A stretch of DNA of 64,000 nt from Synergistetes bacterium HGW-Synergistetes-1 (GTDB lineage Bacteria > Synergistota > Synergistia > Synergistales > Synergistaceae): contig PGXO01000004.1 of assembly GCA_002839185.1 (NCBI GenBank), forward strand, positions 124,001 through 188,000. Reading direction: 5' to 3'. Position 1 is the first letter of the stretch, and each line of letters opens with the position of its first letter. Of this stretch, positions 8,795-53,698 are shown in pieces. The position numbers were made by a program, and so were the translations under genes. The notes beneath the pieces are model-generated. The model ran no database searches. It was not told where the DNA came from and saw only the letters and a program-made list of their open reading frames with translations.

Positions 8795-8812
8795 CTTGGT
8801 GGGCGATATTGG
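8795..8812. repeat. attL, 18-bp attachment core
   Basis: CTTGGTGGGCGATATTGG is identical to 53622-53639. The bases on each side differ, which sets the core limits. It corresponds to the tRNA-Val T-arm 3' side, acceptor stem and CCA, read on the plus strand. Confidence 0.93.
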
Positions 8813-9150: not shown

Positions 9151-9182
9151 GTCCTTATAAATACCCAGAGGAGGTGGAGCGA

Positions 9183-10433
9183 TTGTCCGGATTACTTTTG
9201 CTTAGTCAGGCAAGAGAACGTTTTTCACAACGCTACATAGCCTCACATCTTGACGTTTCAACAAAGACAATTCAACGCTGGTCGATGGGGGACACACCAT
9301 GTCCGCAGAGAATTGAACCGGCACTCAGAGAGCTGCTTCGTTGTAACACCAACACATCAGATGCAGCAGAAAGCAGTTTTACCTTTGCGGATCTTTTTGC
9401 CGGAATCGGAGGCATAAGGATGGGGTTTGAAGCACACGGAGGCAGGTGTGTGTTTACCAGTGAGTGGAATGAATTTTCCAAGTCTACCTACCTAGCGAAT
9501 TTTACTGATAATCATATGTTTGTAGGTGATATTGTCCCGTTTGATGAACATCAGGTTCCTGACCATGATATTCTGCTTGCGGGGTTTCCGTGTCAGCCAT
9601 TCAGTATAGCCGGAGTAAGCAAGAAAAATTCACTTGGACAGCCACATGGATTTGAATGCACAACACAGGGGACGCTTTTTTTTGATGTTGCCCGTATAAT
9701 CGCCGCAAAACGCCCCAAAGCCTTTCTGATTGAAAATGTAAAGAATCTTTTATCTCATGACAATGGTAATACATTCAAGGTAATTCTCGACACTCTGAAA
9801 CATGAGCTTGGCTATGATGTCTATTATAAAATTATTGACGGGCAGCATTTTACGCCCCAACACAGAGAAAGAATCATCATTGTAGGGTTCAGAGAGAAAA
9901 AGCCTTTTTCATGGGACGATCTCAGAATTCCTGCAGGAAAGAAGCAGCTTAAATCGGTTTTGCACAGGAAAGATGGAACAGAGCCACACCTGAAATGGGA
10001 CGAAAACAGATATTTTGATCATACAAAAAACATTGTGCAGCCTAAATATACTTTATCATCGAAACTTTGGAAGTATCTTCAGGATTACGCAGAAAAACAC
10101 AAAGCCGCTGGCAACGGGTTCGGTTTCGGTCTTGCCTCCCCCGACGGTATCAGCAGAACACTGTCAGCCCGTTATTATAAGGACGGTTCTGAAATACTTA
10201 TTCCCCAGGAAGACAAAAAAAATCCAAGACGTCTCACTCCAAGGGAGTGTGCAAGGCTTATGGGTTTCCCTGACACTTTTGTTATACCTGTGAGTGATAC
10301 TCAGGCATACCGGCAGTTTGGCAACAGTGTTGTTGTACCTGTGATAAAAGAGGTGGCAAGAATCATGCTGCCGCATGTGATAAAAAATACTGATGCAGAT
10401 ATTGCTGCTTATTATTCAAGGACTGCGATATGA
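9183..10433 (+). CDS. DNA (cytosine-5-)-methyltransferase of an EcoRII-like system, with N-terminal HTH
   Basis: About 416 residues from TTG 9183, chosen because GAGGAGG ends eight bases before it; the in-frame GTG at 9174 overlaps that site. A short N-terminal helix-turn-helix ([17 protein letters not shown]) precedes the C5-methylase motifs: I ([13 protein letters not shown]), IV (GFPCQPFS, catalytic Cys), VI (ENVKNL), VIII ([11 protein letters not shown]), IX-X ([20 protein letters not shown]). The HTH may let the enzyme repress its own promoter, as known for some dcm/EcoRII-group methylases. Its stop overlaps the start of the nuclease gene (ATATGA). By partnership with an EcoRII-type nuclease the target is predicted to be CCWGG. 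Confidence 0.93.
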
Positions 10434-11692
10434 AAAAGGGATATCTTTCACAGTATTTTACAGGAGTGGCTACAAAAATACTAAGTGAAGTTGAAACTGA
10501 TATCCGCACCTCTCACCAGCATGAGTTCAATGGCGTTGAAGGTCTGAAGGTTATACTTGGAACACTGGATGGAGACACAAAAATCCGCTTAAAGGCCAAT
10601 TTTCTGTATTTTTCCGATCAGGATCCGGAACCAGTCTCAGACGACGGTGAAATGACATGGTATGATGCAAGAGCTAAGGCCAGACTTGAACGGGGTGTCA
10701 ACCGCTATGAACACCGTCTCTATTTTTCCAGTAACACTGTTCTTGACTGTGCTGCTGAAGGTGATCTGTTGCTGATCGCAAAAAAACAGGATGGCTCTCT
10801 GCTCGTGATTATTGCAGAAAAAGGCAGTACAATTTCAAAACAGCTGCTTTGGCTTTTCGGAATGCTTGACAGCAGTTATCCAAATTTTTCAATAAGGTCA
10901 GAACTTGAAACAGAACAGGACAGGATAGAGTTTGCATCGCGAACAATACTTGAAAATATCGGCATTGAAGTAGAGGTTGCGGATGAATCCTACCTTGACA
11001 GGATGCTTGAGCTTTTTGATGGCGGATTCCCCAATACAAAACTTTTCTCTGCATATGCCCGCTCAACACTGCCGGATTTAAATCCTGCAGATGACCCCGA
11101 TGCAGCAATAATCGCATGGATAGAAAGAGAAGAAATTCTTTTCAGAACCCTCGAAAAACATCTGATTGCAGACCGGCTCCAGAAAGGCTTTAATAATGAA
11201 ACAGGAGGAACAGTCGATGTTGACGGATTTATAAGTTTTTCTCTTTCCGTACAGAACAGGCGGAAAAGCAGGGCTGGCGCAGGGCTTGAAAATCATCTTG
11301 AAGAAATTTTTAATGGATGTGGCATCAGATATTCAAGATCAGTTTTTACGGAAGGAAGAAAAAGTCCGGACTTCCTTTTCCCTGGTAAGAGAGAATACGA
11401 TGACTCGTTATATAATCCACTGAATCTTACAATGCTTGGTGTCAAAACAACATGTAAGGACAGATGGCGTCAGGTACTCTCGGAAGCAGCGCGCATACGA
11501 AATAAACACCTCTTTACTCTGGAGGCTGCAATATCAGAACATCAGACGGATGAAATGAAGTCTGACAGGCTTCAGCTGGTTCTGCCGTCATCTCTTTATG
11601 AAACATATACTCCTTCCCAGCGCAGCTGGTTAATAAACCTCACTGAATTTATTAATACAGTAAAAACAAGGCAGGAAATGCAGTTAAATTAA
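10430..11692 (+). CDS. EcoRII-like type II restriction endonuclease
   Basis: 420 residues. The C-terminal catalytic domain is clearly EcoRII-like: [12 protein letters not shown], then KSPDFLFPG (PD-(D/E)XK Asp), then the strongly conserved [19 protein letters not shown] and [11 protein letters not shown]. The N-terminal half (about 1-190) has the size of the EcoRII effector-site domain. EcoRII enzymes cut CCWGG and need two sites. Translation is coupled to the methylase (4-base overlap). The nuclease gene also abuts vsr with no gap. I am confident in the family; the recognition sequence is an inference. Confidence 0.93.
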
Positions 11693-12112
11693 ATGGACGT
11701 CCACTCACCTGAACAGCGCAGCTTTAATATGTCCCGGATCCGGAGTACGGATACCAAACCTGAGATTATTGTCCGCAAGTGGTTATGGGCAAAAGGATAC
11801 CGTTACCGTTTATACAGAAAAGACCTTCCCGGCAGACCAGACATAGTAATATCGCGATATAAAACTGCAGTTTTCATTAACGGATGTTTCTGGCATCATC
11901 ATGAAGGCTGTCATTATGCTACAATCCCGGCGACCCGGACTGAATGGTGGACTGATAAATTTCTGAAGACAGCAGAAAGAGACAGGAATGCCGTTCAGAA
12001 ACTCGAAAACGCAGGATGGAATGTTGTTACAATCTGGGAGTGCGAAATCAGGAGTGGCCGGTTTGAAGAGATTCTAATGGACCGGTTACTCAAAACGGAA
12101 CCTAAGACTTAA
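11693..12112 (+). CDS. vsr: Very short patch repair endonuclease Vsr
   Basis: 139 residues. Motifs: MSRIRSTDTKPE near the start, LPGRPDIV with the catalytic Asp, and FINGCFWHHHEGCHYATIP with the metal-binding Cys/His. Vsr nicks 5' of the T in T:G mismatches made when 5-methylcytosine deaminates, so it protects the genome from mutation at the methylase target (CCWGG). It is the third gene of the operon and begins on the base after the nuclease stop codon. No separate ribosome site is obvious, so translation is probably coupled. Confidence 0.95.
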   Translation: MDVHSPEQRSFNMSRIRSTDTKPEIIVRKWLWAKGYRYRLYRKDLPGRPDIVISRYKTAVFINGCFWHHHEGCHYATIPATRTEWWTDKFLKTAERDRNAVQKLENAGWNVVTIWECEIRSGRFEEILMDRLLKTEPKT

Positions 12113-12167
12113 AACCAAGAACTGCGTTTGTGTTTTCTGGAAATGTTCAGAAGGGTGGATCAAAACA

Positions 12168-12758
12168 GTGGCGAACAATATAAATTACATACAGAAGCTG
12201 CTGGACAGAGTTGGCCTGCATCAGACAGAAGATAAGGGGTGCTATATTGCCCCGCCTTTATCACTTTTTCTCAGGATCAGAAATCCGGGTTCCACACATT
12301 ATTTTCATTCACGTGTTACTTCTGACCCAGTAATATTCTATGTACCGGAACATATTATGCCGGAACCGTCAGTCGATTACTCCCTGTTATCCCATATGAA
12401 AAAAGCAGGACTCGATTTTATGTCAGGCTGTTATGTTCTCTTTCCCGCAACGGGGATTAATGCCTTTTACGTTGGCAGCAGTGAAATAAAGGCAGCCAAA
12501 TCGGACAAAGCAGATCCCTGTTCCATTTACTCTGAAATACTGAAAATAAGGGACATAAACAATAAAAACAATCCGGTGAGAAAATTTGTTCAGAAGAATA
12601 AAATATTCAGATCATATGAAGCTGCTGAATGGATCCGGTCATGCAACATCATGGTGATCCCGCTGCTGAAATGCAGCAGCCAGGACAGAATTCCTGTCTG
12701 TCAGGCGTTTACAAAATATCTTCAGTATGTTTACTCAGACATGATGCCTCTAGAGTAG
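12168..12758 (+). CDS. Unknown protein following the EcoRII/Vsr operon
   Basis: 196 residues from GTG 12168, with AAGGGTGG about ten bases upstream. No family recognised with confidence. Residues about 87-105 read GCYVLFPATGINAFYVGSS, which has the spacing of a GIY-YIG nuclease core (G-x-Y ... Y-V-G-x-S), but the Arg and Glu expected further on are not evident. It is probably the last gene of the restriction-modification operon. It is convergent with the DUF3883-like gene, and the two coding ends overlap by about 50 bases (12709-12758), which is unusual. Confidence 0.7.
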   Translation: MANNINYIQKLLDRVGLHQTEDKGCYIAPPLSLFLRIRNPGSTHYFHSRVTSDPVIFYVPEHIMPEPSVDYSLLSHMKKAGLDFMSGCYVLFPATGINAFYVGSSEIKAAKSDKADPCSIYSEILKIRDINNKNNPVRKFVQKNKIFRSYEAAEWIRSCNIMVIPLLKCSSQDRIPVCQAFTKYLQYVYSDMMPLE

Positions 12759-13869
12759 AGGCCATTTTTTTCATAAATTTAACCTCATATTTACGAGCAA
12801 TCTTATCCATATTTCTCAATTCTTTGTAATTATAAACATGGAATTTTGCCTGCTTTTTTATAAAATATATTCTGTATAAACAATAGTCGTCTTTATTTTT
12901 ATCGGCAAAATTAAGTTCGCCATCCGACATATAAAAGCCGTCCTGTTTATTTGTATCAGTAGTTTTTACCTCAATATATTTAATCTTATAGTTGTCAGAA
13001 CCTTCAATGAGACTAACAGATTTGATATCATACCCAGCCATGTCATTTTTTCCTGATACTAGTTCCACCATGCCAATCAAATCTTTTCTGTTGCTTTCTT
13101 TAAGTTTTCGACGTTCATAATCAAGGACGGCTTTTTCACCTTTGTTTCCCAGTTCCTTATTTTTTGAATCATTACTATTATATTCACCTTTGCGAGTCTT
13201 CCCCTCTGAAGGTTTACCTTTGTTTTCTCGCGGAAAATGCAGTTCTTTTTCTTCATCACTGTCACTGAGTATTATTTCATCGGGTATGTTGCCAGATTTT
13301 TTGTCTTTAGTATCATGTGTCTTTATGCTATTCAGATAATATTTATAAAATTCACTGTCAACACCAAAAATAATTTGAATAAGCTTATCATTGGTATCGG
13401 ATATATAAGCCCCACGGTGGCATTCGAGCTCTCCGGTTTTTTTTATATCATAGAACAGATTGAGTTTTTCCCTCTTACGAAGACTGGCATTTTGTTTGTA
13501 ATAATCTACAAGTTCTTTTTTTTTCGAATCAAATATATCATAAAGCCTAATTGGTTCCAGTAATTGTGTATATTGTGACAGGTCAACCTTAAAAATTTCT
13601 TTTACATTTGGTTGTTCTTTTTCATAACCAGGAGGAAGACAGTTAGTAATATAACCGTCTTCTGAAGCAATGGAATAGCCAATGAATTTAGGATCTTTAT
13701 TTTTATGTTCTAAGTGAAATATTATATCTCCTTTCCTTATTTCTTTGATTTTTGACCAAAATACAGGTTTGTGCCCTCCTTTGTCTTTTTCATCAGCCCA
13801 GGCAGATTTCTTAAACGCCCACACGCCTGTTCGATTAAGCTTTTTTCTCATTTCAATATATACTTTCAT
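12709..13869 (-). CDS. DUF3883-type PD-(D/E)XK nuclease-like protein with PUA/EVE-like N-terminus
   Basis: 386 residues. The N-terminal 1-75 (VWAFKKSAW ... KIKEIRKGDIIFHLEH ... KFIGYSIA) has the pattern of EVE/PUA-like base-reading domains: W near the start, GD before a hydrophobic strand, then GyS. The C-terminal 240-370 has the DUF3883 signature: ELGNKGEKAVLDYE, AGYDIKSVS and KYIEVKTT, consistent with PD-(D/E)XK active-site Asp, Glu and Lys. Together these suggest a modified-DNA-directed restriction enzyme; that role is inferred. It is the second gene of a leftward pair. Its ribosome site GGAGG overlaps the end of the upstream gene. Low GC (about 35%) separates it from the phage structural genes. 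Confidence 0.75.
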   Translation of the reverse strand: MKVYIEMRKKLNRTGVWAFKKSAWADEKDKGGHKPVFWSKIKEIRKGDIIFHLEHKNKDPKFIGYSIASEDGYITNCLPPGYEKEQPNVKEIFKVDLSQYTQLLEPIRLYDIFDSKKKELVDYYKQNASLRKREKLNLFYDIKKTGELECHRGAYISDTNDKLIQIIFGVDSEFYKYYLNSIKTHDTKDKKSGNIPDEIILSDSDEEKELHFPRENKGKPSEGKTRKGEYNSNDSKNKELGNKGEKAVLDYERRKLKESNRKDLIGMVELVSGKNDMAGYDIKSVSLIEGSDNYKIKYIEVKTTDTNKQDGFYMSDGELNFADKNKDDYCLYRIYFIKKQAKFHVYNYKELRNMDKIARKYEVKFMKKMASTLEASCLSKHTEDIL

Positions 13870-13872
13870 TTT

Positions 13873-14892
13873 TTATTCCTCCGTTTTAACTTTGTGGTTG
13901 GTTATATTAATTATCATGGTAGGGACGATCCCGCTGCACTTACTTTCATTTCTATCTGTTTCGCTTTTATTATCTGCTCTAAGTCCATCTAAGCTACCTA
14001 GTAACACCTCTAAAACTTTTAAATCTGCTTTTTTGTTTTCTGGATCTTGTTCCTCTTCAGTATGTTTTTTCAATTGGTTAACATACAATATTAGCGATTC
14101 AATAAGAAGCTTATTTTCCGTTACGGGTGAACCAATGAATCCATCAAGCATATATTCCGCGTATTTGTTTATGTCGTGTGTATATATTATTTCTTTGTGA
14201 TTTTGTGCTGATGAAATATTGCGGATAGGGCAGCATAATATATGCAATGGATCAGAACAGAAATCGTTTTCTAATAAGTAACAAGGAGCAAGATAGTGTA
14301 GCGGAATGAATGTTTTTTCCCATTTACATTTGCTATCAGGAATACACGTAGGTGAAATAAGTTCTGGAATAGCATATAACATATCTATTTCGCCATAGAT
14401 GTCTTTATAAAAGACTCCGAAGTTTGAAATAGATTTGTAAGATGTCTTGGAAAAAACATTTTTAGGCAGGTGTATTGCTTCTCCAGAATTTGATATCTCT
14501 ATATCATTGGGTCTTTCATGCAATAATTCCCACTGAAAGTAGTCCCCTTTAAAACTTTTTAGCGGCACGGCATTTTTCTTCCCCGTCCACTTTGCCTGCA
14601 TGAAGGAAATTCGTATACAGTTTTTGATTTTATTATTACATATTACTATCGTCATTAAATCTGCAATTTCTTTTGTTATTTTGGCCCGTGCTAACGCTGG
14701 AGATTTATAAGTTGCGTTAATTTTTTGGTGGGTTTCTTTAATTATAAACGCGCTTTCAACATTTAATGAATCTATATCTTTAAAACAATCACTCATTGTT
14801 CGAAATATCTCGACCTCACCAAGGGTTTTATTGTTTTTATTAATTTTTTGTTTAAGTTTATTATTTAAACAGTCCTTCATATTAAACGACAA
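13873..14892 (-). CDS. Unknown defence-island protein, partner of the DUF3883-like nuclease
   Basis: 339 residues. The TTG start at 14892 is chosen because GAGGGG lies six bases upstream; ATG 14880 is in frame as an alternative. I recognise no family. A stretch around 105-125 (ADLMTIVICNNKIKN...ISFMQAKW) resembles the D...(Q/E)xK arrangement of some restriction-enzyme folds, which is only a hint. The centre has several Cys/Trp residues (DSKCKWEKTF, LHILCCPIRN). Only three bases separate it from the next gene, so the two form one operon and probably one system. AT-rich. Confidence 0.65.
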   Translation of the reverse strand: MSFNMKDCLNNKLKQKINKNNKTLGEVEIFRTMSDCFKDIDSLNVESAFIIKETHQKINATYKSPALARAKITKEIADLMTIVICNNKIKNCIRISFMQAKWTGKKNAVPLKSFKGDYFQWELLHERPNDIEISNSGEAIHLPKNVFSKTSYKSISNFGVFYKDIYGEIDMLYAIPELISPTCIPDSKCKWEKTFIPLHYLAPCYLLENDFCSDPLHILCCPIRNISSAQNHKEIIYTHDINKYAEYMLDGFIGSPVTENKLLIESLILYVNQLKKHTEEEQDPENKKADLKVLEVLLGSLDGLRADNKSETDRNESKCSGIVPTMIINITNHKVKTEE

Positions 14893-15471
14893 ATTAATCC
14901 CCTCTTTGTTTTTAATATAATATTACCATTCATTATAATAAAAGTTAAAGTTTTATTAGAAGTATGTTGTAAATATAATTGTGTATTAATCAAATAACTA
15001 ATTGGTAATATGTCGATAAGGGTTAAGGAAATCAAAGCCATGATATAAATTACCCTTTTCCAACGAAAAGTAGTTCCCCATGCTGCAAGGTCTTCTTTCA
15101 TAAGTTCGCTTGACATAGACTAAAAATTTTTAGCTGCTTTTGCGTAACACTTACAGGTGGATCTGTATCAATGTAACTGAAGTGAAAAAATCATAGGTAA
15201 AAGTTTAGATGTATATAATTGTATATGCAAGCTAAAATGTTAAAAGGAAATCATCATAACAAAAATAAAATGTAAAAATTAATGATATGTTATTTTTTTA
15301 AGTGATCTTCTTGCTTTTTGCTATGTTTTAAAAATAATTTTCTGGAGTTGGTTTGCAGCATTTTGTAAGCAATATTCAAATAAATTTCTCATGTATCAAG
15401 AGGTCTCTTGCTGTGTATTTGAATTATAGTCAAGTAAACTTACAGCGAGTTTGTATGGCAAAATTATTCTA
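14893..15471. other. AT-rich gap between the nuclease pair and the retron
   Basis: About 580 very AT-rich bases. The leftward end holds a TATATT-type -10 for the 13873-14892 gene. A 79-codon leftward frame (14877-15116) exists but overlaps the upstream region of the real gene and has no ribosome site, so I do not call it. The rest shows no coding signal. The right end leads into the retron promoter. Confidence 0.5.
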
Positions 15472-15500
15472 TTGCAAACAAAACTAAAATACGCTACACT
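15472..15500 (+). promoter_or_regulatory. Probable promoter of the retron RNA
   Basis: TTGCAA (15472-15477), a 17-base spacer, then TACACT (15495-15500). Transcription would begin seven to eight bases later, that is at the first base of the a1 repeat (15508), as expected for an msr-msd transcript. Confidence 0.6.
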
Positions 15501-15507
15501 CCTTTAG

Positions 15508-15673
15508 AGCATATAGAAGAATTGTTTTTCCGTTAGCGAAACGCGACGAAATATATGCAAGTGTACGATATATGCGACATTTGTTAAGTATTGACTATTT
15601 TTACTTTTCTTTACTTTTCTTTACTTTTTCTCTGAGTATATATTCAGCAGAAAGTTGAATTCTTCTATATGCT
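15508..15673 (+). ncRNA. Retron msr-msd noncoding RNA
   Basis: A perfect 16-bp inverted repeat encloses the region: a1 AGCATATAGAAGAATT (15508-15523) and a2 AATTCTTCTATATGCT (15658-15673), just before the reverse transcriptase gene. Twelve bases after a1 the msr has TTAGCGA, the context of the branching guanosine in known retrons (here G 15536), followed by a hairpin with ATATAT arms (about 15551-15574). The msd part has a tandem TTACTTTTCT repeat (15601-15631) and an imperfect hairpin around TGAGTATATATTCA (about 15622-15655). The reverse-transcribed DNA would be purine-rich. The exact priming and stop points cannot be read from the sequence. Confidence 0.88.
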
Positions 15674-15696
15674 TTTTTATGTGAGGCGAAGAACTT

Positions 15697-17403
15697 TTGG
15701 ACGGAAATTTACCCGAAAAAAAATTATTTTATGAATTAAAAACACAAAAAGATGTCGCAGCTTTAATTGGCTGCAAGGAACGGAGTCTGCGGTATTTTCT
15801 ATATGCTGGTAATTGCATAGTAAAATATCGCACTTTTACTTTAAAAAAAACAGATGGAAGTCAACGCATTATTTCCGCACCCATTCCTCCTCTAAAGAAA
15901 ATTCAAAGAAAACTTGCAAATATATTAAATGTTGTCTACAAACCCAAAGCCTGTGTATATGGTTTTGTTCCTAAAAAAAATTTTATAGAAAATGCGAAAC
16001 AGCATGTTGGCTGTAAATATATACTTAATATTGATTTGAAAAATTTTTTTAATCAAATCCATTTTGGCAGAGTTAGAGGAGTTTTAATGGCTAAGCCATA
16101 CCAATTATCCCAAGAGGCTGCAGGTGCAATAGCACAGCTTGCATGTTTTAATGGGACCCTTCCGCAGGGTGCCCCATCCTCGCCAATTCTTACTAATATG
16201 GTTTTCAGATCATTTGACAACGAACTCATTAAATTTGCGGCAAATAATGGTATTAAATATACTAGATATGCTGATGATATGACATTTTCTTCATATCGTA
16301 ATAAAATACCCGAAGAACTTGCCACTGTTAGTGGTAATAATGTCCGGCTAGGTACATTTTTAGAAAAGTTATTAGAAAAAAATAATTTTGAGATTAATCC
16401 TAATAAAATACATCTTTTTCTAAAAAATCAACATCAAGAGGTAACAGGTCTTACTGTTAATGCAATTGTAAATATAAACCGTAGGTATTTAGGATTACTC
16501 CGCGTTATTTTGTATAATTGTGATAAAAAAAATATTGATAATCCTATTTATGAATCAGCAAAGAGATATATTAAATTAGGTTATTGTAAAAATAATAATA
16601 TTATTGAACTAGCCAAAAATGATAAGAACAAAGATAAAATAGAGAAATGGTTCAAACAAGTTTTGATAGGCAAAGTACGCTTTATAAAACAAGTTAAAGG
16701 AGCAGATTCTTTTAGTTATTATTATTTTGCCACTCGATATAACAAGGTATTTAAAGATACAGTATTCGATCTCTCCTTATTTAATTATGTAAATATGCGA
16801 ATACAGCAAAATGTGTTTATTGTAGAAGCAGGTACTAACCAAGGAAGCGGATTTTACCTCAAAGGTTATGGATTTATAACATGTTATCACGTAGTTGAAA
16901 AAAATAAAGAAGAAAAAAAAGAAAATGAAAAAGAAATATATGATTCTGTATGTATTTATCGCTGTGTTGATAGATCAAAACAACCATTCAAACGATTAAG
17001 GAAGGAAGAAATAATTTTAAAAGATAAATTTCTTGACTATGCTCTCTATAGATTAGATGAGAATGAAGTTGAATCAGCTTATAAAATTGGGAATAGTGAA
17101 AAAGTAGAACTGGGAGAGCAAGTAACTATCATAGGATTCCCTAATTATCTTGAGCAAGATACTTTTAGTCTAATAAAAACACATATAACATCTAAGAGTA
17201 ACTTTATGAATGCCCCTGCGTTTTTAGTTGATAGTAAAATTTTTCATGGTACGAGTGGGGGGGCTGTGCTAAATAAAGACTCGGAGATTATTGGACTTGT
17301 TGTCGCAGGGTCACAAGATACAGCCTATGAATTAAAAAACGCATTTGTTCCGATACATGAAATTATGGCGTCATTAAGTTCAAAAAATATTCATGAGTTA
17401 TAA
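15697..17403 (+). CDS. Retron reverse transcriptase fused to a trypsin-like serine protease
   Basis: 568 residues from TTG 15697 (GAGG 11 bases upstream). RT part, 1 to about 340: retron motif NAKQH (99-103), DLKNFF, PQGAPSSPILTN, YADD catalytic motif (191-194) and VTG of region Y (249-251). The C-terminal about 370-568 is a trypsin-like fold with complete triad: His398 in TCYHVV, Asp447 in LDYALYRL, Ser520 in HGTSGGAVL. In retrons the RT makes msDNA from the adjacent RNA, and RT-msDNA holds an effector in check; here the effector is probably the fused protease. GC is very low compared with the phage genes, indicating recent transfer. A 200-base gap to the repressor gene follows, with no convincing gene. 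Confidence 0.92.
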   Translation: MDGNLPEKKLFYELKTQKDVAALIGCKERSLRYFLYAGNCIVKYRTFTLKKTDGSQRIISAPIPPLKKIQRKLANILNVVYKPKACVYGFVPKKNFIENAKQHVGCKYILNIDLKNFFNQIHFGRVRGVLMAKPYQLSQEAAGAIAQLACFNGTLPQGAPSSPILTNMVFRSFDNELIKFAANNGIKYTRYADDMTFSSYRNKIPEELATVSGNNVRLGTFLEKLLEKNNFEINPNKIHLFLKNQHQEVTGLTVNAIVNINRRYLGLLRVILYNCDKKNIDNPIYESAKRYIKLGYCKNNNIIELAKNDKNKDKIEKWFKQVLIGKVRFIKQVKGADSFSYYYFATRYNKVFKDTVFDLSLFNYVNMRIQQNVFIVEAGTNQGSGFYLKGYGFITCYHVVEKNKEEKKENEKEIYDSVCIYRCVDRSKQPFKRLRKEEIILKDKFLDYALYRLDENEVESAYKIGNSEKVELGEQVTIIGFPNYLEQDTFSLIKTHITSKSNFMNAPAFLVDSKIFHGTSGGAVLNKDSEIIGLVVAGSQDTAYELKNAFVPIHEIMASLSSKNIHEL

Positions 17404-17605
17404 CTAAAAAGCATACATTTTTATTGGAGCGCCTGTTGGTTTCTAAAAAGGACCTCATGTTTAAATTTATCAATTACAAATATTTAATTACAATTAGTGC
17501 TTTCAAACTGGTAGGGCTAGCCCCTCCTCTAGCAAGGTTAAAACGACATACATTAATATCATTAGGAGCCATATCTAATTTAACTACTTTCCGCAATTGC
17601 AGGGG

Positions 17606-18328
17606 TTAGAACGCTCTTTTAGGAAATCCCTTCTTCACTGTAGCGACTACTTTACCGATGATCCGAAACCAGGAAGGATCTGCAGCATAGGCAGCTTCAA
17701 TATGTGTGGGACTGTAATTCGGGTTTGCCGGACGCAGTTCAACGCTTCCGTCAGGGCAGAAGATAACCCACTTTATCATCCATGATCCGTCACAGGATAT
17801 AAGCGCTGCGTCCCCGTTCATAACTTCTTCCGCCGGATTTATTACTGCATTCGCTCCCTCTTCAAGCCCGGCACCTGTCATTGAATCTCCTTCAATGGGA
17901 ATGGCAAAGGGTTTTCTTGTTTCGTCCAGACATTTGAAAGTGCTGGCTTCCACAAAGATATTTTCGGTGGATTCAGGAGTCACCCCGTAAAGTCCGTTTC
18001 CTGCGCCGCAGGAAGCGGCAGTTGCCATTGTCAGAAGCGGAATCTCCAGAAATTTGGTTCCTAATCGGACGTTTGATTTCTCTTCTATTATAGGTTTTGC
18101 CTTTTGCTCTAGTTCTTCACTAATTTCTATTTCGCCCATAAGGTATGACAGCGGTTTATTAATTTTTTCAGAAAATGAGCGCAACATAGTCATGGAGGGC
18201 GTCTTTTTCCCTCTCTCCAATTCGCTGTAATATGCTTGGGTAATTCCAAGAATCCTCGCCATCTCTCCCTGAGCATTATTACCACGTATTTCTTTTAAAA
18301 CTTCACAAAACTCTCTAATTTTCATCAT
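17606..18328 (-). CDS. CI-type phage repressor (XRE HTH plus S24 autoprotease)
   Basis: About 240 residues from ATG 18328. The longer frame to 18403 runs through the promoter and operators and is rejected. N-terminal XRE helix-turn-helix (QGEMARILGITQAYYSELERGKKTPS). C-terminal LexA/S24 peptidase with Ser in IEGDSMTG and Lys in WMIKWV; a likely cleavage site lies in the ASCGAGNG stretch. RecA-stimulated self-cleavage is expected to induce the prophage. No ribosome site precedes the start, and the predicted -10 box (18335-18340) ends six bases before the ATG, so the mRNA is probably leaderless, as for lambda cI. It is divergent from the cro-like gene. Confidence 0.92.
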   Translation of the reverse strand: MMKIREFCEVLKEIRGNNAQGEMARILGITQAYYSELERGKKTPSMTMLRSFSEKINKPLSYLMGEIEISEELEQKAKPIIEEKSNVRLGTKFLEIPLLTMATAASCGAGNGLYGVTPESTENIFVEASTFKCLDETRKPFAIPIEGDSMTGAGLEEGANAVINPAEEVMNGDAALISCDGSWMIKWVIFCPDGSVELRPANPNYSPTHIEAAYAADPSWFRIIGKVVATVKKGFPKRAF

Positions 18329-18334
18329 ATTCAA

Positions 18335-18363
18335 AATATAGCTATCAGTTATCAAATTAGCAA
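18335..18363 (-). promoter_or_regulatory. Repressor promoter (PRM-like)
   Basis: On the minus strand TTGCTA (18363-18358), a 17-base spacer and TATATT (18340-18335) form a good sigma-70 promoter. The spacer overlaps the 18339-18351 operator, and the -35 overlaps the 18358-18370 operator. The predicted start point is at or next to the repressor ATG. Confidence 0.6.
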
Positions 18364-18419
18364 ACAGCCAACAGAAATATATATAGCAATTGGCTATTGA
18401 CATATTTAGCGGATAGCTA
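18339..18419. promoter_or_regulatory. Four repressor operators, consensus TAGC-N5-GCTA
   Basis: Dyad 13-mers at 18339-18351 (TAGCtatcaGTTA), 18358-18370 (TAGCaaacaGCCA), 18384-18396 (TAGCaattgGCTA) and 18407-18419 (TAGCggataGCTA). The last two are perfect dyads. They fill the space between the two divergent regulator genes and overlap both promoters, which is the layout of a lambdoid oL/oR-type control region. Confidence 0.75.
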
Positions 18420-18425
18420 TATATT
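18397..18425 (+). promoter_or_regulatory. Early lytic promoter (PR-like)
   Basis: TTGACA (18397-18402), a 17-base spacer and TATATT (18420-18425). The 18407-18419 operator lies exactly in the spacer, so repressor binding should block RNA polymerase. Confidence 0.75.
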
Positions 18426-18448
18426 CATTTCGAAATGGAGGTGATGAA

Positions 18449-18703
18449 ATGGCATTTAACGGAAAACATATTGAGCAATGGCGCGAAAAAAATAAGCTAT
18501 CGCAAAAGGAATGCGCAGAGCTCTTAGGTATAACTCAAGCATATCTATCAGAGATAGAAGCAAATAAAAAAGTTCCTAGTGTATTACTGCTGGAAGCTAT
18601 GTCAGAAAAAACAGGAAAATCTGTTGAGCATTTTTTTATATCAAACCCTACACCACCCCCTGCGGGGTCGGAAGCTCTGCAGGGGGAGATGAAAACAGAT
18701 TAG
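18449..18703 (+). CDS. Cro-like XRE regulator, probably shortened by a frameshift
   Basis: 84 residues with an XRE helix-turn-helix (SQKECAELLGITQAYLSEIEANKKVPS) very like that of the CI protein in this switch, and a good ribosome site (GGAGGTGAT). It should bind the same TAGC-N5-GCTA operators. After residue 65 the frame runs through a C-run (18656-18660) into a short tail ending at 18703. The next frame stays open to 18924 and looks coding. The related gene at 21429-21824 is an undivided HTH plus C-terminal domain of 131 residues, so this gene probably lost or gained a base in the C-run, or uses frameshifting. Confidence 0.8.
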   Translation: MAFNGKHIEQWREKNKLSQKECAELLGITQAYLSEIEANKKVPSVLLLEAMSEKTGKSVEHFFISNPTPPPAGSEALQGEMKTD

Positions 18704-18924
18704 GTTCTGATCCAAAAGATTTTCTGCTCCGGGCTGTAGAGGTAATGGAGTCGGTCCGGGAAGCAAATGAACTGGTGGATGAGCCGCAGGAAATAGCACT
18801 GATCATAAAAGACTGCGCCGACGGTACCCCGGACGAAGATATCACCCAGCAGTGGATCGACAGGGTAAAGGAAAGCGTCAGAACATGCCGGGAACTGTTA
18901 GAGGCGGTTGGGGTTAAGGAATAA
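18655..18924 (+). pseudogene. Out-of-frame C-terminal domain of the cro-like gene
   Basis: The frame is open from before the C-run to TAA 18922-18924 and reads ...DPKDFLLRAVEVMESVREANELVDEPQEIALII...VKE. It is acidic and helical, with normal codon use, and has no good start of its own (ATG 18745 lacks a spaced ribosome site). The last codons and the following 20 bases resemble the end of 21429-21824, and a 25-bp box follows in both places. I read it as the detached C-terminus of the cro-like regulator. Confidence 0.6.
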
Positions 18925-18941
18925 GCATCAAAAAGTCCCAC

Positions 18942-18968
18942 GCACCATGACAATCGAATACCGGGCTT
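18942..18968 (+). repeat. 25-27 bp box, copy 1
   Basis: Core ATGACAATCGAATACCGGGC preceded by GCACC. It lies 17 bases after the end of the cro-like C-terminal frame and 8 bases from the stop codon of the leftward Abi-alpha-like gene. One of five copies. Confidence 0.9.
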
Positions 18969-18976
18969 GTTGCAAA

Positions 18977-19669
18977 TTAAGCAATACAAGCTTTTATAAA
19001 CTGCACTCCTAGAGGTGTTAGCTTAACAATATCAGTGCCTCCAGTTTGAACAGATTGCTTACCGTTCACAAAAACATTATTAGAAGGGAAAAATATGGTT
19101 ATACACTGCAGCCGCAACAAATTGTAAATTGATAAATCATAATCTGTTCCTAGCAAACACCTATTATCAAGATGATCGTTATTAAGATAATCGTTCTTCC
19201 GTAGTATTTCTTTTGTTATGGAAGCAGAATCTAGCCATTTTCCGTCCTCTAATATTTTTTTATGAAAATATTCAAGAATTTTTGCATCTTTGGGGTTTAA
19301 TCCTTTTATTATCTGAAAAAATGCAACTGATAAATCGGTAGGGTCAAAATTAGGATCGACGGCATTTGCCAGAAGTTTTGCCCAGAGTTCCTGCAATTCA
19401 GACTGATCTTCAACAGAAGCGCCCTCAAGGTAAAGAATCCCAAATTTAGTAGTGATATCTCTTAGCTGTTCTTTGCTGGTAATCCCGCGTTTCTTAAGAA
19501 ATTCAACTGCTTTTTGACCTACCGAGACTGCGTTCTCCATTTGCCACAGTTTTATCCATTCTCCGCCAATCATTACGGCACTTTGACCTACAGCACCGGC
19601 TACAGGGAGAAGGGATCCTCTTAGAAGATCTGTAAGAAGCTCCGGAGTGATAAGACTCATTAACGCCAC
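18977..19669 (-). CDS. Abi-alpha-like (DUF4393) abortive-infection family protein
   Basis: 230 residues. The N-terminal third has a hydrophobic helix (LLPVAGAVGQSAVMIGG). The central EDQSELQELWAKLLANAVDP matches the signature of the Abi-alpha/DUF4393 family, whose members occur in phages and defence loci. The C-terminal half looks like a winged-helix fold (ILEYFHKKIL...LTPLGVQFIKAC). It is the last gene of a leftward three-gene operon after the pentapeptide-repeat channel (41-base gap). Its stop is next to box copy 1. Function in exclusion of other phages is an inference. Confidence 0.75.
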   Translation of the reverse strand: MALMSLITPELLTDLLRGSLLPVAGAVGQSAVMIGGEWIKLWQMENAVSVGQKAVEFLKKRGITSKEQLRDITTKFGILYLEGASVEDQSELQELWAKLLANAVDPNFDPTDLSVAFFQIIKGLNPKDAKILEYFHKKILEDGKWLDSASITKEILRKNDYLNNDHLDNRCLLGTDYDLSIYNLLRLQCITIFFPSNNVFVNGKQSVQTGGTDIVKLTPLGVQFIKACIA

Positions 19670-19710
19670 CCTTTCTGAATTAGAATTTAAGTAGCTACTA
19701 CGTTTTGCGC

Positions 19711-21099
19711 TTATTCTTTTTTAATTTTCTGTTCAGGTGCCAGGGATTGGAAAAGTATGCCAAGACGTGTTACAAGAACTGCAAGTATGAAATAACCAAT
19801 CATCAAATTAAAGGTTACAAAGAACAGCGCGAAAAATGTTGCCCATGGTGCACTTTCTTGAATGGCAACGTTTATCCCTCCGAAACCTAAGGTCACCATT
19901 GTGGAAACAGCAAAACAGAAGGCAGACATGAAATTAAGCCACCAGTTACCGGTTATTTTGAGGTTAGACAGAACTGCCGGATCAGGATTTAAGTACGCTA
20001 TTGCTAAGTAGACGAGTGTAAAAGACAAACTTACAACGAGGAATGTTTTAGATATCCTGACGGTGTTACTTCCATAATCCGACAACCACCAGAAAAGACG
20101 TATCGGAAGTGTTTTAATCCTGCCCCAAAGTGACTTCTCTTGTTCTTTATAATAGTTATTCCATGCAATACGGCGGATGTTCGTTTTTAATGCAGCAAGA
20201 AGGGATGGCTCTACCTTTGCGGAATCTAGGCCAACCATGGTAAAGTTCGTTTTTTCATCTATAGTACAACATCTAATCATTGTTTCGCCATTTACAGTTG
20301 TGCCTGTGAAATTAGCTCCCTTAAGGTTAGTCTTTGTGTCTTTTATGTCTTTTAAGACCATCTCACCACACATAAATGTGCCTTTCAAAACAGCATCCTT
20401 TAAATTTGCGTTTTCAATGTTAACCATCCATAAAGTTGCATCTGTGAAATCAGTAAATTGAAGATTTGCATTCTGAAGATTGGTTTGCCACAAGTTTGCT
20501 TCTTTAAGATTTGCACCATCTAGGTTGGCGTTTTTTAAATTTGCGCCATTAAAACTTGTATCTTTAAGGTTTGCTTCACTTAGGTTTGCATTTTCTAAAA
20601 TAGCATCTCCAAACTTAGCGCCTTCAAGGTTTGCATATGCCAAAGTTGCATTTTTTAAGCTTGCACTTGACAGGCAAGCAGCTATTTCATCTTCTAAATC
20701 ACCATGTTTGAGCGAGGTGTTATTGGGATTTGTCTGCATATCAAGAGATGCTTTTCCAAGATTTGCCATGCGTAAATTGATATCATCAAGAATAGCATGT
20801 CCCAAATCAACCCCTTGTAAAAAGGCTTCTGTTAAATCAGCATTATTAAGATGCGCGTAAGGCATAAATGCCCCTTCTAAATGTGCTCGAATCATAACAG
20901 CATTATCTAAATTTATGTTTGTTAATGTAAATCCAGCTAGTGGGGCGTCACAAAGGTTAATTATTCTTTTGGGGTGTAATTTACGCCATTCGTTCCACTC
21001 TGAAATGTCTTCAGTTTCAGAACAGCGTTTGAGCATAGCAAACTGATCTGGGGCATATCTTATCTTTTCCGGAATAGCGTAACACTGTGTTTTTTCCAT
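19711..21099 (-). CDS. Pentapeptide-repeat protein with C-terminal two-TM ion channel
   Basis: 462 residues. Residues about 55-270 are pentapeptide repeats (A[N/D]LxxA: LKNANLDGANLKEANLWQ), forming a right-handed beta helix. Residues about 335-450 have two TM helices with an ion-channel pore between them: WWLNFMSAFCFAVST MVTLGFGG, where TLGFGG replaces the K+ filter TVGYG. A cytosolic sensor joined to a membrane pore fits a regulated channel. It begins 4 bases after the XRE repressor gene, with which it must be cotranscribed, and precedes the Abi-alpha-like gene. Position in the immunity region suggests superinfection exclusion or membrane-depolarising defence (inference). Confidence 0.85.
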   Translation of the reverse strand: MEKTQCYAIPEKIRYAPDQFAMLKRCSETEDISEWNEWRKLHPKRIINLCDAPLAGFTLTNINLDNAVMIRAHLEGAFMPYAHLNNADLTEAFLQGVDLGHAILDDINLRMANLGKASLDMQTNPNNTSLKHGDLEDEIAACLSSASLKNATLAYANLEGAKFGDAILENANLSEANLKDTSFNGANLKNANLDGANLKEANLWQTNLQNANLQFTDFTDATLWMVNIENANLKDAVLKGTFMCGEMVLKDIKDTKTNLKGANFTGTTVNGETMIRCCTIDEKTNFTMVGLDSAKVEPSLLAALKTNIRRIAWNNYYKEQEKSLWGRIKTLPIRLFWWLSDYGSNTVRISKTFLVVSLSFTLVYLAIAYLNPDPAVLSNLKITGNWWLNFMSAFCFAVSTMVTLGFGGINVAIQESAPWATFFALFFVTFNLMIGYFILAVLVTRLGILFQSLAPEQKIKKE

Positions 21100-52273: not shown

Positions 52274-53446
52274 TTATATATTAATATTAGGTTTTAACGG
52301 GATATCTTTCTTATCCCGTACTGCGATTAGAAAGTCTCCCCACCACTCCATCATGGCAGTTCTTTGAGGCATGTACTGAGCGCGGTTATATGTTCTTCTT
52401 ATAGTGTTTCTGTCAACGTGTGACAGCTGGTGCTCGATGACATCCGCCGGCCATTCATATTCATTCAAGATGGTACTGGCCATCGATCTGAACCCATGAG
52501 CTGTCATATCTTCTTTCTCATACCCCATTGATCTTAAGGCCATGCGGACGGCCCCATCGCTTAAATGTCGGCCGCCTCCGCGCGGAGAAGGGAAGAGCCA
52601 GGTCTTGTTTCCCGATATTGCCTGGAGTTCTTTCAATACCCTTATCGCCTCAGTTGATAGTGTAACAACATGTTCGTTTTTCTCTTTCATCTTTTCGGCT
52701 GGTATGCGCCATTCTTTTTTGTTGAGATCAAATTCTTTCCACTCGGCCTGCCGAATTTCGCCGGGACGGACAAACGTCAGAGCCGACATTATCATCAAAT
52801 ACCGTACTAATCTTTGAGGATAGGCATAGACGCTGCGCATCAGAGCTCCAATATCTTCATTGTCAACGACTGTTGCATAGTGTTCCTGGCGGTGCGGCTG
52901 CAGTGCTTTTGATATGGCAGATGCGGGATTGACCAGAGTTCTGTCAGTTGTAATGGCATAATCAAAGATCTGTTTCATAAATTGGCGTAATCTGTGGGAA
53001 GTGTCTATAAGTCCTTCTTTTTCAATTTGTCTGCAAAAAAGCAGGATTGAGTTAGGAGTAATTTCATTCAGGTTTCTATTGCCAAACTCGGGGAGCAGAT
53101 ATTTATTCAGCCTCAATTCTACGGTCCTAACATAGTTTTTGCTTTTATCAGGAAGGATGACGGAGTTAAACCATTCAACTGCAAGCTCCTTAAAAGAATA
53201 CTCTCCGGAAGGGCCCCTTTTATCCTCTTTTCTTATTTCATAGTTCTTATCCCTTGCAGCTTTTAAGCTGACTCCAGGGTAGGTTCCGAGACTTTTGCGT
53301 TTCTCTTTTCCGTCGATCCAAAGACGCGCGATCCAATATTTGCTTCCGTTAGGCCTGATGTCGAGGATCAATCCCCGTCCATCTGAAAGGCTGTATGGTT
53401 TTTCTTTGGGTTTTGCGTTCTTTATGATGATCTCAGTCAGAGCCAT
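52274..53446 (-). CDS. int: P4-family tyrosine integrase
   Basis: 390 residues. The N-terminal DUF4102-type domain (SDGRGLILDIRPNGSKYWIARLWIDGKEKRKSLGTYPGVSLKAAR) is followed by the core-binding domain and the catalytic domain: Arg in FVRPGEIR, HxxR as HGFR, HQLSH and Tyr in YNRAQY. It lies next to attR, transcribed away from the tRNA. Directs integration at tRNA-Val 3' end. Confidence 0.95.
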   Translation of the reverse strand: MALTEIIIKNAKPKEKPYSLSDGRGLILDIRPNGSKYWIARLWIDGKEKRKSLGTYPGVSLKAARDKNYEIRKEDKRGPSGEYSFKELAVEWFNSVILPDKSKNYVRTVELRLNKYLLPEFGNRNLNEITPNSILLFCRQIEKEGLIDTSHRLRQFMKQIFDYAITTDRTLVNPASAISKALQPHRQEHYATVVDNEDIGALMRSVYAYPQRLVRYLMIMSALTFVRPGEIRQAEWKEFDLNKKEWRIPAEKMKEKNEHVVTLSTEAIRVLKELQAISGNKTWLFPSPRGGGRHLSDGAVRMALRSMGYEKEDMTAHGFRSMASTILNEYEWPADVIEHQLSHVDRNTIRRTYNRAQYMPQRTAMMEWWGDFLIAVRDKKDIPLKPNINI

Positions 53447-53621: not shown

Positions 53622-53639
53622 CTTGGTGGGCGATATTGG
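53622..53639. repeat. attR, 18-bp attachment core
   Basis: Identical to 8795-8812. It overlaps the 3' 16 bases of tRNA-Val, including CCA, so integration restores an intact tRNA gene. Confidence 0.93.
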
Positions 53640-53698
53640 GTTCGAACCAACGACTTCCACCGTGTGAAGGTGACACTCTACCGCTGAGTTAATCGCCC
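53624..53698 (-). tRNA. tRNA-Val (anticodon CAC)
   Basis: A full cloverleaf can be folded: acceptor GGGCGAT/ATCGCCC, D stem ACTC/GAGT, anticodon stem TCACC/GGTGG with loop TTCACAC, five-base variable loop, T arm GTTGG-TTCGAAC-CCAAT, then ACCA encoded. Anticodon CAC reads the Val codon GUG. It is the integration site of the prophage. Confidence 0.95.

What the first reader, a model, noticed from the sequence alone, without database searches (positions are those of the whole stretch)
15472..17403. Protease-fused retron with visible msr-msd RNA inside a prophage
Seen: a 16-bp perfect inverted repeat (15508-15523 / 15658-15673), a TTAGCGA branching-G context, a promoter starting exactly at a1, and an RT with NAxxH, YADD and VTG motifs fused to a trypsin-like domain with intact His398, Asp447, Ser520. 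Known: retrons are RT + msDNA + effector defence units. Some catalogued retron RTs carry protease fusions, as far as I recall, so the class may be known, but substrates and triggers of such proteases are largely undescribed. Inference: msDNA damage by an invading phage unleashes proteolysis.
Basis: partly seen in the sequence, partly recalled or inferred. Interest (0 to 1): 0.88.

Follow-up and report, generated by a model that had tools for sequence, protein, structure and literature searches.

The report
Protease-fused (type XI) retron in prophage
A phage dormant in a bacterial chromosome carries a catalogued but little-studied kind of anti-phage unit, a retron whose DNA-making enzyme is fused to a protein-cutting enzyme; it is a divergent new member of a known kind.

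Summary
The finding is real. ORF 15697-17403 encodes a retron RT (NAKQH, YADD, VTG) fused to an HtrA-like trypsin domain with His398/Asp447/Ser520. It hits PADLOC's RT-Protease_XI over residues 11-560 (E 7.7e-158): retron type XI. The 16-bp repeat a1/a2 is the only perfect inverted repeat of 13 bp or more at such spacing in the window. 18 of 19 loci of this type (window included) carry such a repeat beside the RT start, with mostly different sequences. Among solved structures the RT is nearest to Retron-Eco2 (Ec67).

Two details fail. TTAGCGA begins 9 nt past a1, inside a predicted hairpin, and is not there in 16 other elements; G15524, directly after a1, is a better but unproven candidate. 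The promoter match is no better than chance.

The element is inside a prophage whose ends I located: an 18-bp att core at 8795 and 53622 (tRNA-Val), with empty sites in two relatives.

Likely mechanism, inferred from Eco2 and untested: RT-msDNA holds the protease inactive until phage activity damages the msDNA. The class is catalogued; I found no described substrate or trigger. An odd local feature is a 3-copy 10-nt repeat in the msd.

The parts
15472..15500 (+). weak sigma-70-like promoter match, TTGCAA-17-TACACT, ending 7 nt before a1
   Evidence: 8 of 12 matches; 84 of 300 shuffles equal or better, so unproven. The homologues L031 and L043 have TTGACA-17-TATTTT (10 of 12) at the same place
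15508..15523 (+). a1, 5' arm of the msr-msd RNA
   Evidence: 16-bp perfect inverted repeat with 15658-15673
15524..15524 (+). G directly after a1: candidate priming (branching) guanosine, in the place of rG15 in Retron-Eco2
   Evidence: position relative to a1, compared with Eco2 anatomy in PMC12405507 (passages) and PMC6868368 (passages); inference, not shown. Only 4 of 17 elements have G at this exact place
15531..15548 (+). first predicted msr stem-loop (3-nt AAA loop); contains TTAGCGA 15533-15539
   Evidence: minimum-free-energy fold; first hairpins at a similar place in homologues
15557..15584 (+). second predicted hairpin
15600..15628 (+). 2.9 tandem copies of TTTACTTTTC in the presumed msd template; the cDNA would be purine-rich and weakly structured
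   Evidence: no comparable repeat in 16 other type XI elements examined
15626..15654 (+). predicted hairpin at the 3' side of the msd, next to a2
15658..15673 (+). a2, 3' arm of the msr-msd RNA
15697..17403 (+). RT-protease fusion protein, 568 aa, TTG start, type XI retron
   Evidence: PADLOC RT-Protease_XI E 7.7e-158, protein residues 11-560
15844..16458 (+). reverse transcriptase domain (residues 50-254, RVT_1)
   Evidence: Pfam E 4.7e-25; model residues 2-360 align to Retron-Eco2 at Z 33.2
16843..17298 (+). trypsin-like / HtrA-like protease domain (residues 383-534)
   Evidence: Pfam Trypsin_2 E 7.2e-18; fold like Deg/HtrA proteases, Z about 21-23
16888..16890 (+). codon of catalytic His398
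   Evidence: column invariant in 18 of 18
17035..17037 (+). codon of catalytic Asp447
   Evidence: column invariant in 18 of 18
17254..17256 (+). codon of catalytic Ser520 (GTSGG)
   Evidence: column invariant in 18 of 18
8795..8812 (.). att core at the left end of the prophage (18 bp)
   Evidence: direct repeat with 53622-53639; empty sites in G001:C14 and G004:C128
53622..53639 (.). att core at the right end, at the 3' end of tRNA-Val (53624-53698, minus strand)
52274..53446 (-). prophage integrase beside the right att site
   Evidence: PHROG 1 integrase E 6e-69

Best explanation
This is a type XI retron, a single-gene anti-phage unit carried as cargo in the left arm of a prophage. A structured RNA (15508-15673), closed by the a1/a2 stem, is bound by the RT half of the 568-aa protein. 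The RT primes on a 2'-OH close to the inner end of a1 (best candidate G15524) and copies the msd into msDNA. By analogy with Retron-Eco2, the RT-msDNA assembly holds the fused HtrA-like serine protease inactive. When an infecting phage damages or remodels the msDNA, the protease is released and cleaves proteins, stopping growth before the phage matures. Shown by sequence: retron-type RT, intact protease triad, RNA anatomy, prophage location. Inferred: msDNA synthesis, inhibition by msDNA, the trigger, proteolysis as the lethal step. Substrates are unknown.
For: PADLOC RT-Protease_XI E 7.7e-158 over residues 11-560; Pfam RVT_1 and Trypsin_2. Nearest solved protein is Retron Ec67 (Eco2), E 1.2e-52 over residues 16-272; AlphaFold model mean pLDDT 82.5 aligns to Eco2 at Z 33.2 over 332 residues and to HtrA/Deg proteases at Z about 21-23. 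RT D193, D194 and triad H398/D447/S520 invariant in 18 of 18 proteins, the other 17 at 26-33% identity to the window. a1/a2 layout in 18 of 19 loci against 963 of 4750 shuffles. In four related elements (window not among them) RNAalifold finds changes on both sides that keep the pair at two pairs of the first msr hairpin. No gene family occurs near more than 3 of 19 loci, as expected of a single-gene system. Eco2 precedent for msDNA-controlled fused effectors: PMC12405507, passages.
Against: No msDNA, phage-defence or proteolysis data exist for this element. The promoter at a1 is no better than chance. The msd cDNA shows no long hairpin, unlike Eco2's. G directly after a1 is found in only 4 of 17 elements, and 4 of 17 have no G in the first 12 nt. 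Protease-fused RTs do not form one clade (p-AU 0.026), so functional inference from other type XI members is weaker than the shared name suggests.
Confidence: 0.6

Rival explanations
1. Same retron, but its main selected role is to keep or protect the prophage: a toxin (protease) - antitoxin (RT-msDNA) addiction unit or superinfection exclusion by the lysogen, rather than defence of the bacterium as such.
For: It sits between the left att site and the cI-like repressor of a prophage with mapped ends, beside a restriction-modification set, an Abi_alpha gene and other defence-like genes. 13 of the 18 other loci come from the viral collection, though that collection was the one searched most.
Against: Five of the 18 other loci were found in plasmid records, so the unit is not tied to prophages. 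The two roles are not exclusive.
Confidence: 0.3
2. The protease does not kill: it processes the RT or one specific regulatory or phage protein, and another activity stops the phage.
For: HtrA-type proteases are often regulators (established knowledge, recalled). In other defence systems a trypsin-like protease activates a partner nuclease rather than killing directly (PMC12799240, passages).
Against: No shared neighbour that could be such a zymogen was found among 19 loci, within the flanks held (up to 5 kb, shorter for several).
Confidence: 0.2
3. Not a working retron: an RT-protease of another (DRT-like) kind that makes no branched msDNA, the upstream repeat having another role.
For: The priming nucleotide is uncertain: four homologues (L023, L031, L043, L063) show no G in the first 12 nt after a1.
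Against: Retron motifs NAxxH and VTG, best-matching solved structures are retron RTs, a1/a2 layout in 18 of 19 loci, paired changes in the msr hairpin of four relatives.
Confidence: 0.05
4. Chance inverted repeat upstream of an unrelated RT fusion.
For: The region is AT-rich (30% G+C), which favours chance repeats; 1 of 100 shuffles of the window's region gives a repeat of equal or better score.
Against: 0 of 250 shuffles give that score with that layout; it is the longest such repeat in 64 kb; homologues have the same layout with other sequences.
Confidence: 0.02

Closest known systems
Retron type XI (PADLOC RT-Protease_XI, PDLC02960 / PDLC02959)
   Same: RT with C-terminal trypsin-like protease in one gene, msr-msd RNA directly upstream, no accessory gene found
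   Different: 26-33% identity to the 17 other full-length members aligned; AT-rich, with a tandem repeat in the msd; the RT does not group firmly with any other protease-fused RT
Retron-Eco2 / Ec67 (type I-C, RT-Toprim)
   Same: closest solved RT; effector fused to the C-terminus behind the thumb; a1, G, short single strand and stem-loop in the msr in the same order
   Different: Eco2's effector is a Toprim RNase, here a serine protease; Eco2's msd is one long DNA hairpin (PMC12405507, passage), here none is predicted
Retron type XII (RT-TIR)
   Same: related RT backbone, fused C-terminal effector
   Different: TIR instead of protease
HtrA/Deg serine proteases
   Same: protease fold and triad
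   Different: no PDZ domain found by Pfam; fused to an RT
Nuclease-protease pairs of Hachiman, AVAST, Lamassu and DRT (PMC12799240, passages)
   Same: trypsin-like protease used in antiviral defence
   Different: there the protease is fused N-terminally and an MBL-type nuclease gene sits immediately upstream; here it is C-terminal and the two upstream genes scanned are not such a nuclease

Membership tests
Retron (in general) | retron-clade reverse transcriptase with NAxxH, YADD and VTG motifs | tested here: met
   the best-matching solved chains are retron RTs
Retron (in general) | msr-msd RNA with complementary a1/a2 ends next to the RT gene | tested here: met
   layout in 18 of 19 loci
Retron (in general) | priming guanosine in or directly after the inner end of a1 | tested here: inconclusive
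   G15524 is in the right place but its context (TTGT) is none of those listed in PMC6868368 (passages); TTAGCGA has a listed context but begins 9 nt further in and is predicted paired; 4 of 17 elements have no G in the first 12 nt
Retron (in general) | production of branched msDNA | not testable with these tools
   needs an experiment
Retron type XI | RT fused to a C-terminal trypsin-like protease | tested here: met
Retron type XI | intact Ser-His-Asp triad | tested here: met
   18 of 18 aligned proteins
Retron type XI | single-gene system without conserved partner | tested here: met
   no gene family near more than 3 of 19 loci (ORFs of 70 aa or more, blastp E 1e-6, flanks of uneven length); PADLOC describes the model as 'single gene'
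Retron type XI | RT in one clade with other protease-fused RTs | tested here: inconclusive
   one clade of all 19 protease-fused RTs rejected at p-AU 0.026; the window's own place is unresolved
Retron type I-C (Eco2/Ec67) | C-terminal Toprim domain | tested here: not met
   residues 360-568 have the HtrA fold
Retron type XII | C-terminal TIR domain | tested here: not met
   no TIR in Pfam scan; HtrA fold in its place
MBL nuclease - trypsin-like protease pairs | MBL-fold nuclease gene immediately upstream and N-terminal protease fusion | tested here: not met
   protease is C-terminal; the upstream genes 13873-14892 and 12709-13869 match no family and NOV_C; the small ORF 14877-15116 was not scanned
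Phage defence system | protects against phage | not testable with these tools
   no assay

The most novel reading that the evidence does not exclude
A DNA-gated protease: reverse-transcribed single-stranded DNA is the direct inhibitor of an HtrA-like serine protease, and this member senses phage not through a long DNA hairpin but through a purine-rich, weakly structured msDNA built from three 10-nt repeats, for instance when a phage single-strand-binding protein or nuclease takes it away.
Probability: 0.2. Interest if true: 0.7.

Novelty: new member of a known kind. Interest (0 to 1): 0.4.

Why it matters
Type XI retrons are listed by a defence-finding program (PADLOC), but in the papers reachable here I found none that names type XI, and none with a worked-out protease substrate or trigger (searches, seen as listings, with passages of some papers; the library lacks most subscription journals). 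This locus gives a complete, intact unit with mapped RNA ends, catalytic residues and mobile-element boundaries. With the aligned homologues it offers a set of RNAs for finding the real priming nucleotide and for testing whether ssDNA can hold a protease off.

Tried and rejected
Rejected: TTAGCGA as branching context. Of 17 elements only the window has TTAGC within 20 nt of a1; L032 has TTAGCGA 60 nt and L048/L087 have TTAGC 44 nt after a1. Against my rejection: by base composition the first 20 sites would hold TTAGCGA about 0.001 times, TTAGC 0.02, TAGC 0.05, so the match is uncommon; but its place, inside a hairpin with 9 nt before it, is wrong for a retron priming G as described in PMC6868368 (passages). 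Rejected: promoter at a1 as evidence (84 of 300 shuffles). Not supported: one clade of protease-fused RTs (p-AU 0.026; the group is defined by the fusion, but the 41 rows were picked after the first tree, and well-supported branches alone force only one change of the label).

MAFFT alignments of the window RNA with ten other RNAs and of ten without it were too diverged to use; pair counts come from four relatives only. One search listed three papers, but their passages speak of types XII and XIII, not XI.

Limits of the counts: the 19 regions include near-copies (L048/L087, L034/L025, L024/L037), so they are not independent; the layout limits were set; for the 18 with the layout, 0-3 of 250 shuffles match score and layout; for L023 the scoring missed a repeat visible by homology and it is counted as a miss. 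Searches used 17 elements (L025 and L035 left out). Duplicates L099, L110, L111 were dropped (L099 stands for L023). L025 is cut by an IS element and left out of the 18-protein alignment.

Full report
What was checked. The window holds one ORF at 15697-17403 (TTG start, 568 aa). Pfam finds RVT_1 at residues 50-254 (E 4.7e-25) and Trypsin_2 at 383-534 (E 7.2e-18). PADLOC's RT-Protease_XI models match residues 11-560 at E 7.7e-158, with type XII (RT-TIR) and type I-C (RT-Toprim) next, mainly through the RT half. In an alignment of 18 RT-protease proteins the two YADD aspartates and all three triad residues are invariant in 18 of 18; the other 17 have 26-33% identity to the window.

The RNA. The 16-bp repeat 15508-15523 / 15658-15673 is exact. 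Within 60-220 nt spacing it is the only perfect inverted repeat of 13 bp or more in 64 kb. The 166-nt RNA folds at -45.2 kcal/mol, z -4.99, 0 of 200 shuffles as good. I scored the best inverted repeat in up to 380 nt around the start codon of 19 RT-protease loci, window included. In 18 of 19 it lies with 88-134 nt between arms and its 3' arm ends within -46 to +86 nt of the start codon taken. Dinucleotide shuffles show a best repeat in slightly wider limits in 963 of 4750; for the window 0 of 250 shuffles reach the score with that layout, for the 17 others with the layout 0-3 of 250, for the miss (L023) 27 of 250. The limits were set after seeing the first run, and some loci are near-copies. 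Apart from the near-copies the arm sequences differ between loci, so complementarity is kept while sequence is not. In four more closely related elements, the window not among them, RNAalifold keeps the first msr hairpin through changes on both sides at two pairs. Six homologous RNAs fold with the same plan of closing stem, then hairpins; five of the six had 0 of 200 shuffles as good and one had 1 of 200.

The branching G. PMC6868368 (passages) states that the priming guanosine lies in or directly after the inner end of the a1 stem, usually in TAGC, in Eco2 in CAGA. PMC12405507 (passages) describes Eco2 as a1, rG15, a 4-nt single strand and one stem-loop with a 3-nt loop. In the window the same order is a1, G15524, TTTTTC, and a hairpin 15531-15548 with a 3-nt AAA loop. 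I therefore take G15524 as the better candidate. This is inference, and the comparison does not settle it: G stands directly after a1 in 4 of 17 elements (window, L021, L032, L033), within the first four nt in 11 of 17, and in no place of the first 12 nt in 4 of 17 (L023, L031, L043, L063).

The promoter. TTGCAA-17-TACACT ends 7 nt before a1, but 84 of 300 shuffles of the same 50 nt do as well. Two of the 16 other loci tested in that call, L031 and L043, have TTGACA-17-TATTTT (10 of 12) 5-6 nt before a1, with 9 and 5 of 300 shuffles as good. This supports transcription starting near a1 in these two, not in the window itself.

The protein. The best-matching solved chains are Retron Ec67 (Eco2), E 1.2e-52 over residues 16-272, then other retron RTs; the protease half matches HtrA proteins. 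An AlphaFold model from 15 sequences has mean pLDDT 82.5 and pTM 0.63, with stretches under 50 at 1-5, 403-419, 421-433 and 539-545. Residues 2-360 align to Eco2 at Z 33.2, rmsd 2.6 over 332 residues, and residues 360-568 to Deg/HtrA proteases at Z about 21-23. So the protein is an Eco2-like RT with the Toprim replaced by an HtrA-like protease without PDZ domains. In RT trees RTs with protease, TIR and Toprim share one backbone; by PADLOC the four tested members of the large clade of other fusions (L038, L042, L049, L072) are RT-Toprim_I-C, L115 also, L036 and L050 RT-TIR_XII, while L030 and L048 are RT-Protease_XI. A single clade of the 19 protease-fused RTs is rejected (p-AU 0.026), and the window's own position is unresolved. 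This suggests that effectors were exchanged more than once; long branches and a post-hoc choice of rows make it uncertain.

Where it lies. tRNA-Val (53624-53698, minus strand) overlaps at its 3' end an 18-bp core, 53622-53639, repeated at 8795-8812, with an integrase at 52274-53446. In 2 of the 7 other genomes of the genus the left and right flanks are contiguous and overlap by exactly 18 bases: G001:C14, left match 148-860, right match 32-165 (near the contig's end); G004:C128, left match 720-779, right match 762-1440. These are empty sites; the other five do not show both flanks together. So the prophage runs from 8795 to 53639; the ten genes scanned include terminase, portal, head, tail, integrase and repressor genes. 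The retron sits between the left att site and the cI-like repressor, in a stretch of 30% G+C (14893-17403) against 45.5% for 21000-53446, among an EcoRII-like restriction-modification set with Vsr, a NOV_C protein, an Abi_alpha protein and a pentapeptide-repeat protein. At E <= 1e-50 the type XI model finds nothing in the other 184 of 185 genomes held of the phylum, so it was probably acquired horizontally.

A local oddity. The presumed msd template contains 2.9 exact copies of TTTACTTTTC (15600-15628). The cDNA would be 65% purine and weakly structured: the 88-nt complement folds at -4.6 kcal/mol, z -0.86, 39 of 200 shuffles as good. Of 17 type XI elements compared, only the window has a long internal direct repeat (19 matched positions at a period of 10, 0 of 200 shuffles; the others at most 8). 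Weak cDNA folding by itself is not unique to the window (L021, L022, L086), nor is the purine content (L022).

Mechanism. For Eco2, PMC12405507 (passages) proposes a self-inhibited assembly in which msdDNA blocks the effector until phage DenB, likely, degrades it. The same logic with a protease is the simplest reading here. It predicts that the free protease is toxic. No gene family was found near more than 3 of 19 loci, which argues against a zymogen partner such as the MBL nuclease of the pairs in PMC12799240 (passages). Steps shown: domain make-up, RNA anatomy, location. Steps inferred: msDNA synthesis, inhibition, trigger, proteolysis as the block.

Novelty. PADLOC already holds the type, and PMC12405507 (passage) mentions protease fusions among retron RTs. 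Searches found no paper in the library that names type XI: the three papers listed by one search speak of types XII and XIII in the passages shown. The paper that defines the retron types, Mestre et al. 2020, is not held; that it named type XI is recalled. This is a new, divergent member of a known kind.

Noticed in passing
A further effector swap.
   Followed up: partly
L026, 3-698 and 746-1435: A faecal phage-collection contig has the RT and the trypsin-like protease in two separate ORFs 47 nt apart: a split version or a frameshift.
   Followed up: no
window 9174-21099: The prophage's left arm is a defence cargo zone: DNA cytosine methylase, EcoRII-C restriction enzyme, Vsr, NOV_C protein (PADLOC PDC-S36), retron, Abi_alpha (PDC-S47), and a pentapeptide-repeat protein with a weak ion-channel-like C-terminal match.
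   Followed up: partly
window 8795-8812 and 53622-53639: 18-bp att core; empty sites present in two relatives.
   Followed up: yes
window 15600-15628: Three head-to-tail copies of TTTACTTTTC in the msd template, unique among 17 type XI elements.
   Followed up: partly
L023 3732-3862, L031 4811-4951, L043 4699-4842, L063 4705-4836: These type XI RNAs have no G in the 12 nt after a1; the priming nucleotide may not be a guanosine there.
   Followed up: no
L021, L023, L030, L031, L043 upstream of RT: Shared RNA elements: TTTAAC/TTTAAT then TTTC after a1, and in four of the five (not L030) AAGAGAAAA before a2, conserved better than the rest.
   Followed up: partly
L024 5636-9461: The Haematobacter plasmid member is followed by an ATP-dependent endonuclease and a UvrD-type helicase, an arrangement that recalls Gabija (recalled; annotation).
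   Followed up: no
control genome Methanosarcina acetivorans: The type XI model rings at E <= 1e-50 in this archaeon, probably through a retron-like RT.
   Followed up: no
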